DNA from: Flavobacteriales bacterium
GTDB taxonomy: Bacteria; Bacteroidota; Bacteroidia; Flavobacteriales_F; PHOS-HE28
DNA: 64,000 nucleotides
Assembly: GCA_019912395.1 (NCBI GenBank)
Contig: JAIOIH010000055.1
Span: 1 to 64,000, forward strand
Direction of reading: 5' to 3'
Part shown: positions 35,342 through 38,352 of the stretch, in pieces
Numbering within the stretch: the first letter of the stretch is position 1
How the letters are laid out: each line of letters starts with the position of its first letter
Program-made: the position numbers and the translations under genes
Notes under the pieces: generated by a model
What the model saw: the letters and a program-made list of their open reading frames with translations, nothing else
The model's database searches: none
Told to the model about the DNA's origin: nothing

Positions 35342-35920
35342 ATGAATTTGCATTCCGGATCTCTGGTCGTCGTTTTACTCACCCTGTCGGCTTGTGGTGG
35401 ATCACTTTCCTCCGCGGATGAAGCCGCCGCTCTTGAAAAGGGAGCTGCGATCACCGATGCTTCGTTCCAAGCCTTGAGCGAGAAGTTGCAGCAGGCCATG
35501 AAGCAGGGTGGCCCTGCGCATGCCGTGGATTTCTGTTCGCTCAATGCACAGGCCATGGTGGACTCGCTTTCCTCCGCACACGGTGCGAGCATTCGCCGCA
35601 CCAGCGATCGCATTCGGAACCCGCACGATGCACCCGTCAAGGGCGAAGCCGCCGTGCTACGGCAGATGCTCACGGAATGGGAAAAGGAGAACAGGATGAC
35701 CGATGTGCCTGCTCGGGTGGAACTGGAGGGCGACAGCCTGGCCTATTACCGACCGATCTTCATTAACTCGCCTGCTTGCCTGAAGTGCCATGGCATGCCG
35801 GGCTCTACGCTCGACAGCTCGGCACTTGCCGTGATCAGCGAACGCTACAAGGAGGATCGGGCGACCGGGTATGCCCTTAATGAGCTCCGGGGCATGTGGA
35901 GCGTCCGGTGGCAACGTTGA
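35342..35920 (+). CDS. DUF3365 (Tll0287-like) c-type haem lipoprotein
   Basis: The 192-residue protein has a lipobox (LVVVLLTLSACGG, Cys18), so it is exported and lipidated. A DUF3365 domain follows. The haem-attachment motif CLKCH is close to the C-terminus within NSPACLKCHGMPG. YYRPIFINSPACLKCH and RATGYALNELRGMWSV match the Tll0287-type fold, a haem-binding PAS-like domain suggested to sense redox or gas ligands. Genome context gives no partner. A consensus -7 box abuts the start codon. Confidence 0.88.
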   Translation: MNLHSGSLVVVLLTLSACGGSLSSADEAAALEKGAAITDASFQALSEKLQQAMKQGGPAHAVDFCSLNAQAMVDSLSSAHGASIRRTSDRIRNPHDAPVKGEAAVLRQMLTEWEKENRMTDVPARVELEGDSLAYYRPIFINSPACLKCHGMPGSTLDSSALAVISERYKEDRATGYALNELRGMWSVRWQR

Positions 35921-36222
35921 GGGACACCAGCATCAGGGCGGTTGTGCCTTGGACGGATCACGTGCAGGAATGAATATTGGCGTAGCGATCGCGCTGATCG
36001 GGGCGGGAACCCGGCCGAAACGGTTACCAGCAAAGGCGACCCTTGGCGTATCGATGAACAATCCCTTCTCCCCCGGGGGGATGGTCATCCACCCTCCCTG
36101 GTCCTGGCTGGGCTTATGGGTGGCCCTGGTGCCCATGGGGCGGCAGTACGATCGGCGGTGAGGGGTCGCGGTCTTTTCGGATCATCAATACCCCACTCCC
36201 GGTGAGTTTGGCCTACTGCGGG
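35921..36222. other. 302-bp gap without a supported gene
   Basis: The gap lies between the DUF3365 gene and the end of the Fic gene. A 63-codon plus-strand frame (35970-36161, MNIGVAIALIGAG...) is open, but it has no recognisable domain, no promoter and a composition that may be chance. No terminator hairpin with a T-run was seen for either flanking gene. Confidence 0.5.
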
Positions 36223-37188
36223 TCACTCACGGAGCGGTTTGTACCATGCGGTGCGTCCCGTGCCAATGCGCTCGAGCGATCCGGCGGCCACGGCTTCGGC
36301 CAGGTCCCTGCTCGCGGTGGCGGGCGAAAGCTCGGGGAAGTCGCGCCGATAGTCCTTCCGGGTAAAGCGCCCGTGGACCTTGGCCAGGAGGAAGGTTGAA
36401 ATGCGGTCCGCTCCCGAGAGCACGCTGCGCTCGCGGACCAGCAGCTCATGGAGGGCCTCGTCCATCCGTTCCATCATGTAGTTGATGAAACTTCCGCAGT
36501 CCTCCTGCCGATCGGCGAATTCCATGGCGGCGTAGTATCCGCTGCGACCGCGCTCGATGAAGCCCTCGAGCGGCAGAAAGGAGAACACGGGCCATTGGCG
36601 CATCAGCATCAGCTTTTGCCAGAGGCGGGCGATCCTGCCATTGCCTGCTGTGAACGGGCGGAGGTTCACCAGGCCGTAGTGCAATACGCAGCTGGTGATC
36701 AGCAGCGGGGCCTCGTCGTTCTCGGCAAAGTGCAGGAGCTGCTCCACTTGGCTGGAGATGTTGCCGCCCGCGGCCTTGCGCCGGCCGGGCCGGTTCCCGT
36801 ACACCACCTCCAGGGTCCCGGTGCGGTATTGGCCGGGGTCCAGCGCCAGCCCGTGCATCAGTTCGCCATGGGCAAGCCGGAGGTCCTGCCCCAGATATGG
36901 TTCAAGGGAGGGGAGCAGGTCATAGAGCCGGATCGTGTTCATCACTTCCAGTTCGGCGGAGTTGGACGTGTCGGGGGCGCGTCCATCGAGCAGTTCGGCG
37001 ATGGTCCTGCGGTCCAGGGGATTATCCTCCAAGGCCAGGGTGGCGTGGATGGTGCTGACCCGGTGGGCGCGCCGGAGCAGGGGAGAAGGATGGTGCAGAT
37101 GGGCGGCGTTCACTTCGCCCAAGCGTTCGGAGATGGAGGCCAGTAGGGTAAGCGTGCGAGGGGTGAGTGAATAGAGCGTGGGATTCAT
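36223..37188 (-). CDS. Fic-domain protein with degenerate active site and C-terminal wHTH
   Basis: The 321-residue protein has an N-terminal helical region with an inhibitory-helix-like motif TLALEDN (residues 50-56, pattern S/TxxxE). A Fic core and a C-terminal winged-helix domain (KDYRRDFPELSPATASRDL) follow. The Fic loop reads NLRPFTAGNGRIAR. The catalytic His of HPFx(D/E)GNGR is Arg177 and the metal-binding acid is Ala181, while GNGR is intact. The Arg codon is CGC at 36658-36660, one transition from CAC. AMPylation through the usual mechanism is therefore doubtful; a binding or regulatory role is possible. ATG 37188 is preferred to the TTG at 37212. A TACCTTTG box lies 21 nt upstream. 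Confidence 0.87.
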   Translation of the reverse strand: MNPTLYSLTPRTLTLLASISERLGEVNAAHLHHPSPLLRRAHRVSTIHATLALEDNPLDRRTIAELLDGRAPDTSNSAELEVMNTIRLYDLLPSLEPYLGQDLRLAHGELMHGLALDPGQYRTGTLEVVYGNRPGRRKAAGGNISSQVEQLLHFAENDEAPLLITSCVLHYGLVNLRPFTAGNGRIARLWQKLMLMRQWPVFSFLPLEGFIERGRSGYYAAMEFADRQEDCGSFINYMMERMDEALHELLVRERSVLSGADRISTFLLAKVHGRFTRKDYRRDFPELSPATASRDLAEAVAAGSLERIGTGRTAWYKPLRE

Positions 37189-37209
37189 AATGGTATCAAA
37201 TGAGGCTAT

Positions 37210-37217
37210 CAAAGGTA
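37210..37217 (-). promoter_or_regulatory. -7 box of the fic gene
   Basis: The minus strand reads TACCTTTG, an exact TAnnTTTG match, 21 nt upstream of ATG 37188. The -33 element is not obvious. Confidence 0.5.
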
Positions 37218-37389
37218 GTGTTCAAGTGGTCCGGGATGATTTCACCCAGATGATATCGAGCGGCGCGGGGGACGGCTGTTCAGCGGGAAATGCTTATGTA
37301 TCAACGGCTTTCTGCTGTTGGGAGGGTTGGTTCAGGGTCTGCGAGGGTCCACATCCAGAGGTATGGTAAAAGATTTTACCACACGGGTC

Positions 37390-37419
37390 TTGGATGAGAA
37401 GGGAAAAAACCTACATTTG
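37390..37419 (+). promoter_or_regulatory. promoter of the ribosomal protein supercluster
   Basis: TTG at 37390-37392 and TACATTTG at 37412-37419 are separated by exactly 19 bp, the best match in the window to the Bacteroidetes sigma-A promoter (TTG-N19-TAnnTTTG). A C follows the box, as often preferred. An A-rich stretch lies between the elements. The start site should be near 37425, giving a ~58-nt leader for rpsL. Confidence 0.85.
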
Positions 37420-37420
37420 C

Positions 37421-37457
37421 AGCCCGATTTTCGCCCGCATTAGCGGGTGTATCGGCT
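37421..37457 (+). promoter_or_regulatory. structured rpsL leader
   Basis: CGCCCGC (37432-37438) pairs with GCGGGTG (37443-37449) around the loop ATTA. Flanking AGCC-C-GAT (37421-37428) can pair with ATCGGCT (37451-37457) with one bulged C, although part of that left arm may lie upstream of the transcript start. It could stabilise the 5' end or be a target for S7/S12 feedback; the sequence does not show which. Confidence 0.5.
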
Positions 37458-37482
37458 GATAAACAGGACGAAACGGAGCTTC

Positions 37483-37869
37483 ATGCCAACCATTCAACAG
37501 CTGATCCGCAAAGGACGCAAGGCACCCACCTTCAAGAGCAAATCGGTGGCCTTGGCCGAGTGCCCCCAACGCCGTGGTGTATGCACCAAGGTGTACACCA
37601 CCACCCCGAAGAAGCCGAACTCGGCGCTTCGCAAGGTGGCCAAGGTGCGCTTGTCCAATAAAATGGAGGTGATCGCCTACATCGGTGGTGAAGGCCACAA
37701 CCTTCAGGAACACAGCATCGTGCTGGTGCGCGGCGGAAGGGTGAAGGACCTGCCCGGCGTGAAGTACCACATTGTGCGCGGTGTTCTGGACACTTCGGGC
37801 GTGGAAGGCAGGAACCAGCGCCGGAGCAAGTACGGTACCAAGCGCAAGAAGGAAGGTGCCAAAAAGTAA
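37483..37869 (+). CDS. rpsL: 30S ribosomal protein S12
   Basis: The 128-residue protein is the first gene of the str part of the cluster and forms part of the decoding site. [16 protein letters not shown] includes K43, and RVKDLPGV includes K88 and D89. These are the residues whose change gives streptomycin resistance, so the sequence is of the sensitive type. The ATG at 37483 starts the conserved MPTIQQLI; the in-frame ATG at 37447 would lie in the structured leader. rpsG follows after 18 bp. Confidence 0.98.
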
Positions 37870-37887
37870 CCATCGACAGAGAGAACG

Positions 37888-38352
37888 ATGCGTAAGAAAG
37901 CAGCCAAGCACACCACATTGCCCGACCCCAAGTACGGTCAGGTCCAGGTGACCAAGTTCGTGAACAACCTGATGTACGACGGCAAGAAGAGCCTGTCGTT
38001 CGATATCTTCTACAGCGCCATTGACATGGTGGCCGAGAAGACCGGCGAGGACGGCATGGAGATGTTCCGGAAGGCCATCGTCAACGTGACCCCCCAAGTG
38101 GAGGTGCGCAGCCGCCGCGTTGGTGGAGCGAACTTCCAGATCCCCCAACCGGTTCGCGAGAGCCGCAAGGAGAGCTTGGCGATGAAGTGGTTGATCGGGT
38201 ACAGCCGCAAGCGCAACGAGCGCAGCATGGAGCAGCGCCTCGCCAATGAGATCATGGCCGCCGCCAAGGAGGAGGGGGCCGCATTCAAGAAGAAGGAGGA
38301 AGTACACAAGATGGCCGAGGCCAACAAGGCCTTCAGCCACTTCCGCTTCTAA
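37888..38352 (+). CDS. rpsG: 30S ribosomal protein S7
   Basis: The 154-residue protein nucleates assembly of the 16S 3' domain and lines the E site. It matches the family over its full length, with [17 protein letters not shown] near the start and [19 protein letters not shown] in the beta-hairpin. It ends NKAFSHFRF, as usual for the short bacterial form. It sits between rpsL and fusA with gaps of 18 and 20 bp. In E. coli S7 represses this operon; no similar binding site could be identified here by eye. Confidence 0.98.

What the first reader, a model, noticed from the sequence alone, without database searches (positions are those of the whole stretch)
36640..36670. Fic protein whose catalytic His and acidic residue are both replaced
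The loop reads RPFTAGNGR where HPFx(D/E)GNGR is expected: Arg177 for the catalytic His and Ala181 for the Mg2+-binding acid. The CGC codon differs from a His codon by one transition. The frame is intact, an inhibitory-helix-like TLALEDN and a C-terminal wHTH are kept, and a consensus -7 box is present. The gene may encode a regulator that binds nucleotide or DNA without AMPylating, or a Fic enzyme of changed chemistry.
Basis: partly seen in the sequence, partly recalled or inferred. Interest (0 to 1): 0.55.

Follow-up and report, generated by a model that had tools for sequence, protein, structure and literature searches.

The report
Genus-wide dead Fic turned self-regulator

Summary
The gene at 36223-37188 (-) encodes a 321-aa Fic fold plus a C-terminal winged helix, with RPFTAGNGR in place of HPFxDGNGR. 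Full-length homologues occur in 40 of 45 genomes of the genus. The His position is Arg in 39 of 40 (one Cys) and the Asp position Ala in 40 of 40, written with varied codons. These 40 form one clade (100/100) on a long stem, against HPFxDGNGR relatives. The active-site stretch has the lowest dN/dS of the protein. New finding: between the promoter box it saw and the start codon lies a palindrome (core TCAWWTGA), present at all 40 loci and, near-perfect, before HPF relatives in Bacteroidota. In the own genome it occurs only there. Operator bases vary with residue 293 of the recognition helix. The gene is divergent from rpsL wherever both can be seen. Best reading: a pseudo-Fic that no longer AMPylates, represses its own promoter through its winged helix, and probably still binds a nucleotide-like ligand in the altered pocket. 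DNA binding, ligand and cellular output are inferred, not shown.

The parts
36223..37188 (-). Gene of the pseudo-Fic protein, 321 aa, start ATG at 37188 (a TTG 24 nt upstream lies inside the operator)
   Evidence: PF02661 39.7 bits, cut-off 24; model, mean pLDDT 87.2, pTM 0.81; best match 4rgl, Z 34.8, rmsd 2.0, 251 residues
36634..36660 (-). Altered Fic loop RPFTAGNGR (residues 177-185): His to Arg 177, Asp to Ala 181; anion-nest GNGR kept
37021..37041 (-). Inhibitory-helix motif TLALEDN (residues 50-56); Glu54 kept in 39 of 40
36772..36819 (-). Remodelled flap (residues 124-139): acidic residue at 127 (40 of 40; Gly in 15 of 15 HPF) and Arg137 (40 of 40)
36235..36414 (-). C-terminal winged helix (residues 259-318); recognition helix 289-301 with SPATASRDL
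37210..37217 (-). -7 box TACCTTTG of the fic promoter
37189..37210 (-). Operator GATAGCCTCATTTGATACCATT: imperfect palindrome between the -7 box and the start codon; the perfect form in HPF relatives is GATAGTATCAAATGATACTATC
37483..37869 (+). rpsL (S12), first gene of rpsL-rpsG-fusA..., divergent from fic wherever both are seen
37412..37419 (+). -7 box TACATTTG of the rpsL promoter, about 195 bp from the fic -7 box; TTG at 37390-37392 with a 19-nt spacer

Best explanation
A standalone class II Fic protein with a winged helix lost AMPylation once, in the ancestor of this genus, and was kept as an autoregulated pseudo-enzyme. SHOWN BY SEQUENCE: catalytic His and metal-binding Asp replaced and fixed as Arg and Ala; fold, GNGR anion nest, Arg188, Glu54, Tyr218 and Asp226 kept; a palindromic operator adjoins the -7 box of its own promoter and was found almost nowhere else. 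INFERRED: a dimer binds this operator through its winged helices and represses its own transcription; the pocket, more cationic and without a metal ligand, binds a nucleotide or other phosphorylated ligand (or a partner peptide on the remodelled flap) without transferring AMP; occupancy moves the winged helix and so sets the protein's own level. Because the only recurrent DNA target found is its own gene, the useful output is probably binding a ligand or partner, with autorepression as its dosage control.
For: Clade and constraint: 40 of 45 genus genomes full length; RPF rows monophyletic, 100/100, stem 1.24 changes per column; dN/dS 0.05-0.21 in five close pairs and lowest, 0.109, at residues 166-195; synonymous codon diversity at 177 and 181. 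Loss of catalysis: His and Asp replaced; a CccR His variant (H192A) gave no AMPylated FtsZ peptide in PMC9755527. DNA side: operator at 40 of 40 RPF loci and before 17 HPF genes (16 of 26 different genes after three repeats are removed from 29 loci; 1 of 5 loci); best dyad score 7.08 (n = 36) against 5.41 in other parts of the same intergenic regions and 5.27 shuffled; 28 promoter-operator matches in 45 genomes, 26 at RPF fic, 2 at HPF fic, none elsewhere, 0 in the reversed control; own genome one site. Residue 293 ranks first of 217 variable columns for operator bases +6 and +8; A at +6 in 24 of 31 Ser293 rows and 0 of 8 Thr293 rows. Precedents: CccR, a Fic-HTH, represses its own promoter through its HTH and must dimerise (PMC9755527); ATP binding moves the C-terminal domain of Sofic (PMC12249575).
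Against: No binding data. A gene that only represses itself is not selected for that alone, so the real output is missing. The winged helix evolves faster (dN/dS 0.411) than the pocket. Over all 573 pairs the median dN/dS is 0.30, and single distant pairs reach 0.84, which I put down to saturated and codon-biased dS. The link of residue 293 to the operator is confounded by relatedness: only L025 and L040 depart from the main clade split. Flap residues 138-139, Ala-Pro in HPF, are lost, which may spoil adenine binding. Two RPF genomes have the operator 120 and 170 nt upstream of the homologous start.
Confidence: 0.6

Rival explanations
1. Regulator of the divergent rpsL-rpsG-fusA operon: the protein, bound between the two promoters, adjusts translation-factor expression to a nucleotide signal.
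For: rpsL is the divergent neighbour in 38 of 40 distinct RPF loci, the other 2 ending at contig ends, while the downstream neighbour changes between genomes. The intergenic length stays 288-327 nt in 36 of the 38.
Against: No copy of the operator at the rpsL promoter, whose -7 box lies about 195 bp away. G013 lost fic and keeps the rpsL leader and its inverted repeat. Vertical inheritance next to a ribosomal operon also gives fixed linkage. HPF relatives examined lie in other contexts.
Confidence: 0.12
2. A Fic enzyme of changed chemistry: Arg177 and a metal-free pocket support another transfer or hydrolysis.
For: The pocket region is the most constrained part, several neighbouring positions changed together and are fixed (E172G, G187A, T232G, flap 127 and 137), and a His-less Doc clade (Gln) was proposed not to be dead (PMC4454073 section 6).
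Against: The general base and the Mg2+ ligand are both gone; no new conserved residue is an obvious replacement base.
Confidence: 0.1
3. Silencer of active relatives: the pseudo-Fic represses or hetero-dimerises with incoming HPF Fic proteins that carry the same operator.
For: HPF genes carry the ancestral form of the same operator; 2 of 45 genus genomes hold both. PADLOC's SoFic model, of an anti-phage toxin, hits the protein at 8.3e-24.
Against: Only 2 of 45 genomes hold a close HPF relative, and their RPF operators have drifted from the HPF form (AGATCA against CTATCA arms).
Confidence: 0.08
4. Decaying pseudogene or sequencing error.
For: Both catalytic residues are lost; one genome (G013) lost the gene altogether.
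Against: 40 intact frames, one clade, low dN/dS, fixed replacement residues with synonymous variation.
Confidence: 0.02

Closest known systems
Dde_2494, Fic family protein of Desulfovibrio (PDB 4rgl)
   Same: Closest solved sequence (E 2.6e-38) and fold (Z 34.8, rmsd 2.0, 251 residues, 31% identity)
   Different: Has HPFADGNGR; no function given in the records seen
CccR, Fic-HTH protein of Yersinia pseudotuberculosis (PMC9755527; abstract passages, section 9 and part 1 of section 10 read)
   Same: Fic domain plus C-terminal HTH, class II, dimer, represses its own promoter through inverted repeats; half-site AGATAATCAT resembles GATAGTATCAT
   Different: Keeps its catalytic His and AMPylates FtsZ; its half-sites are 26 bp apart, here they are contiguous; it is a secreted effector
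SoFic / Sofic (PDB 3zcn, 3eqx; PMC12249575, passages only)
   Same: Class II Fic with a C-terminal domain; PADLOC model hit 8.3e-24
   Different: An active AMPylase with the catalytic His; our protein is far under the NCBIfam SoFic equivalog cut-off (35.8 of 550 bits)
Degenerate Fic domains: Doc clade D2 (Gln for His), Bartonella BepC/Bep8, AvrB (PMC4454073 section 6; PMC8401265 section 12 and passages; PMC2686095 passages)
   Same: Fic fold kept with catalytic motif altered
   Different: Other replacements; no autoregulatory operator described in the parts read; the RPFxAGNGR type is not among the five motif groups of PMC4454073

Membership tests
Fic/Doc (Fido) fold family, PF02661 | Profile match above the curated cut-off | tested here: met
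   39.7 bits, cut-off 24
Fic/Doc (Fido) fold family, PF02661 | Fic fold with flap and active-site loop | tested here: met
   Model pLDDT 87.2; 4rgl Z 34.8, FICD Z about 26
Fic AMP transferase (HPFx(D/E)GNGRxxR) | Catalytic His | tested here: not met
   Arg in 39 of 40, Cys in 1 of 40
Fic AMP transferase (HPFx(D/E)GNGRxxR) | Acidic metal ligand | tested here: not met
   Ala in 40 of 40
Fic AMP transferase (HPFx(D/E)GNGRxxR) | GNGR anion nest and second Arg | tested here: met
   G182, N183, R185, R188 in 40 of 40; G184 in 39 of 40
Class II Fic | N-terminal (S/T)xxxE(G/N) | tested here: met
   Glu54 in 39 of 40; the next residue is Gly in 30 and Asp in 8 of 40 (Asp in the window), so the last position is relaxed
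Autoregulatory Fic-HTH (CccR-like) | C-terminal HTH | tested here: met
   full-length alignment to SoFic 3zcn only with a domain shift (rmsd 9.5)
Autoregulatory Fic-HTH (CccR-like) | Inverted repeat at its own promoter | tested here: met
   40 of 40 RPF loci
Autoregulatory Fic-HTH (CccR-like) | Binding and repression | not testable with these tools
   Needs gel shift and reporter
Autoregulatory Fic-HTH (CccR-like) | Half-sites 26 bp apart | tested here: not met
   Half-sites contiguous; so it may work like CccR but its operator is of another type
FicTA toxin-antitoxin | Adjacent antitoxin gene | tested here: inconclusive
   Downstream neighbours vary, but only ORFs of 70 aa or more were called
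SoFic equivalog (NF046030) | Score over the curated cut-off | tested here: not met
   35.8 of 550 bits

The most novel reading that the evidence does not exclude
A Fic enzyme was rebuilt, once and for a whole genus, into a metal-independent nucleotide sensor: Arg177 takes the place of catalytic His and Mg2+ charge and is clamped by the new acidic flap residue 127, and ligand occupancy switches the winged helix on the gene's own operator beside the str operon, linking nucleotide state to the protein's level and possibly to rpsL-fusA expression.
Probability: 0.25. Interest if true: 0.75.

Novelty: new variant of a known kind. Interest (0 to 1): 0.55.

Why it matters
Degenerate Fic domains are known mostly as scattered or effector-borne oddities. 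Here one is fixed across a genus of environmental bacteria, with a single origin, strong constraint on the dead site, active relatives that share its operator, and a named DNA target. That makes the question 'what does a Fic fold do without AMPylation' testable with one protein, one 22-bp DNA and a set of natural before/after homologues.

Tried and rejected
Pseudogene or error: rejected. A wider regulon: the consensus within 3 mismatches gave only the fic site in the own genome (its reversed control gave 3 sites on each strand); across 45 genomes, 18 of 20 sites within 2 mismatches are at fic, the two others at G032:C250 and G022:C23 were not followed, save that the G032 stretch encodes no relative of this Fic. 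Structured RNA in 36200-37900: no Rfam match up to E 1. Mobile carriers: no plasmid or phage record with 60% identity or more; 96 and 6 records with weaker matches. Conserved partner downstream: none seen among ORFs of 70 aa or more. Rows left out: L052 (a different Fic) from trees and counts; L109, L113, L114, L115, L095 and L097 (cut, partial or repeat) from the tree; L062 and L065 from the dyad counts because their operator lies farther upstream (found, used); duplicate loci of one genome dropped (still counts the identical G044/G010 pair as two of 38; one search drops one for its ranking). Absent genomes: G013 true loss; G003, G040, G035 (73-79% complete) show no rpsL, so uninformative; G036 cut by a contig end. 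Pairwise dN/dS by Nei-Gojobori is saturated and codon-biased for distant pairs, hence only close pairs and region contrasts are used. One search used an rpsL translation that was one base out of frame; one search replaces it. One search ended in a script error after printing its main results; sites were recomputed. Name of the genus: PHOS-HE28 is recalled and was only searched as a word, not tested. The roles of the FICD residues that face the nucleoside are recalled. Papers seen only as listings: those, 77 other than the five named in Closest known systems.

Full report
WHAT IS THERE. The gene runs 37188-36223 on the minus strand and encodes 321 aa. Pfam Fic 39.7 bits, cut-off 24. The loop is RPFTAGNGR; codon 177 CGC at 36658-36660, codon 181 GCA at 36646-36648. 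AlphaFold2 from 38 genus sequences: mean pLDDT 87.2, pTM 0.81; best PDB match 4rgl, Z 34.8, rmsd 2.0 over 251 residues, 31% identity; FICD and SoFic follow at Z about 26.

NOT A LOCAL MUTATION. In a search of 147 genomes, the own one included, a full-length homologue (49-87% identity) lies in 40 of 45 genomes of the genus, counting the own. Of the other five, G013 has rpsL but no fic; G036 is cut by a contig end; G003, G035 and G040 show no rpsL at all and are 73-79% complete. Position 177 is Arg in 39 of 40 and Cys in 1; position 181 is Ala in 40 of 40. Codons at 177: CGG 15, CGC 14, CGT 8, AGG 1, CGA 1, TGC 1 (the Cys); at 181: GCC 19, GCG 8, GCT 8, GCA 5, so the amino acids, not the bases, are held. 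A scan of the genome collection (84,980 species by its description) with two peptide patterns returned 40 loci; 37 are this gene in Bacteroidota MAGs (one labelled Chryseobacterium gleum), and three are weak hits elsewhere (one pattern contains AGNGR, so other forms could be missed). In 395 genomes across the phylum, 22 had a match; apart from the own genome and the partial L113, every one reads HPFxDGNGR.

ONE ORIGIN, STRONG CONSTRAINT. A tree of 63 rows puts the 40 RPF rows on one side of a branch, 100/100, length 1.24; the 23 HPF rows, including two from the same genus, are on the other. In five close pairs (L032/L033, L036/L038, L026/L032, L020/L027, L017/L018) dN/dS is 0.05-0.21. Summed over 573 pairs it is 0.109 for residues 166-195 against 0.39 (1-100), 0.25 (101-165), 0.16 (196-250) and 0.41 (251-321); the median per pair is 0.30 and single distant pairs reach 0.84, where dS is unreliable. 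Mean pairwise identity tells the same: 0.83 at 166-195, 0.63 overall. The dead site is the best-kept part.

WHAT CHANGED WITH IT. Against 15 HPF rows, fixed differences sit around the pocket: E172 to G (Ala in 5), I176L, H177R, D181A, G187A, T232G, K45S. The flap gained an acidic residue at 127 (Asp 24, Glu 16 of 40; Gly in 15 of 15 HPF) and Arg137 (40 of 40), and lost the HPF Ala-Pro at 138-139. Kept: Glu54 (39), His170, R185, R188, Y218 (40 each), D226 (39) of 40. For SoFic, E73, R206, H198 and Y241 are named as ATP-coordinating (PMC12249575); by motif offset R206 is R185 here and H198 is Arg177, while E73 as Glu54 and Y241 as Tyr218 are my mapping. So three of four stay.

THE OPERATOR. Aligned on the start, nearly every RPF locus reads TA(C/T)CTTTG-(A/T)T-AGCATCA-WW-TGATACTA before fic. 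A core TCAWWTGA (one base off in L063 and L078) is found at 38 of the 40 loci given, and in the remaining two, L062 and L065, at -120 and -170: 40 of 40, with the identical G044/G010 gene counted twice. Pairing at arm positions 6 and 8 exceeds all 2000 re-pairings of arms between genomes; positions 7 and 9 do not, and the centre pair is less often complementary than expected. Best dyad score 7.08 of 9 (n = 36), 5.41 in 134 other 60-nt stretches of the same intergenic regions, 5.27 shuffled. HPF genes in Bacteroidota carry it as a near-perfect 22-bp palindrome, such as GATAGTATCAAATGATACTATC: of 29 loci, 19 have the core within 30 nt of the homologous start (16 different genes once the repeats L095, L097 and L115 are removed) and 10 do not. 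Of five further loci the plasmid gene of Bergeyella has it and four do not, making 17 genes. Of the ten without, five (L104-L108) follow what looks like an HsdS C terminus, and three plasmid relatives are annotated inside type I restriction operons, as expected of genes without a promoter of their own.

IS IT THE PROTEIN'S OWN SITE? Own genome: one match to the promoter-operator pattern and one site within 3 mismatches of the palindrome. Genus: 28 matches in 27 of 45 genomes, 26 at RPF fic (one on the cut gene of G036) and 2 at HPF fic, none elsewhere; with up to 2 mismatches, 18 of 20 sites are at fic. Residue 293 in the recognition helix is the top-ranked of 217 variable columns for operator bases +6 and +8, fourth for -8, 25th for -6, and not informative for +7 (rank 196), -7 (163), -5 (152) or +5 (171). 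A at +6: 24 of 31 Ser rows, 0 of 8 Thr rows (Fisher p 0.0001, which ignores relatedness). L040, Ser inside an otherwise Thr clade, has the Ser-type operator. This points to recognition by this winged helix, but rests on few independent events.

NEIGHBOURHOOD. rpsL (then rpsG, fusA and more) is divergent from fic in 38 of 40 distinct loci, the other two ending before it; genes downstream of fic vary. The rpsL -7 box is about 195 bp from that of fic. G013 keeps rpsL and its leader without fic. I read the linkage as suggestive only.

MECHANISM. The His is the general base and the Asp/Glu takes part in metal binding in Fic enzymes (PMC8401265 section 12); a His variant of CccR no longer AMPylates FtsZ (PMC9755527). 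Loss of AMPylation is therefore likely. CccR shows that a Fic-HTH dimer can repress its own promoter and that toxicity and regulation are independent, and its half-site AGATAATCAT resembles GATAGTATCAT here. In Sofic, ATP binding moves the C-terminal domain (abstract passage). Combined, the likely working is a ligand-responsive self-repressor whose output lies in the ligand or partner it holds.

KNOWN OR NEW. A survey of Fic/Doc sequences lists five motif groups, one with Gln for His, none with Arg (PMC4454073 section 6). A search with 'pseudo-Fic', 'Fic pseudoenzyme', 'RPFTAGNGR', 'lacks the catalytic histidine' and 'Fic motif' found no paper holding two of them; three further searches listed no such clade by title or abstract. 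That covers open-licence PMC papers only. Hence: new variant of a known kind.

Noticed in passing
37364-37381: Perfect 8-bp-arm palindrome TGGTAAAAGATTTTACCA upstream of the rpsL promoter, seen in this genome only among the intergenic regions compared.
   Followed up: partly
rpsL promoter region, 37380-37440 and equivalents in the genus: Conserved rpsL leader (CTACATTTGCAGCCCG) and, in many genomes, an inverted repeat TTCAAC...GTTGAA near -33; much of it also kept in G013, which lost fic (L147).
   Followed up: partly
L045 and L046 (G015, G029): An HPFSDGNGR Fic paralogue lies in the same place in both genomes, after what looks like ruvB and before a conserved ORF.
   Followed up: no
L168, L169, L171 (Azotobacter and Shewanella plasmids): HPF relatives of this Fic sit between hsdS and a restriction or nuclease gene of type I systems.
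   Followed up: partly
L172 (Bergeyella porcorum plasmid): HPF relative split over several annotated ORFs, so probably broken, with the operator intact.
   Followed up: no
L089, CAMCAZ010000001.1: MAG labelled Chryseobacterium gleum carries this genus's rpsL-fic locus; the label may be wrong.
   Followed up: no
35342-35917: Tll0287-like protein with a CLKCH haem motif, downstream of and convergent to fic.
   Followed up: no
L060/L014 and L062/L016: Two motif variants inside the RPF clade: Cys177 in G002 and GNAR in G027.
   Followed up: no
L148 (G036:C79): A second, 72% identical rpsL in G036, whose contamination is given as 9%.
   Followed up: no
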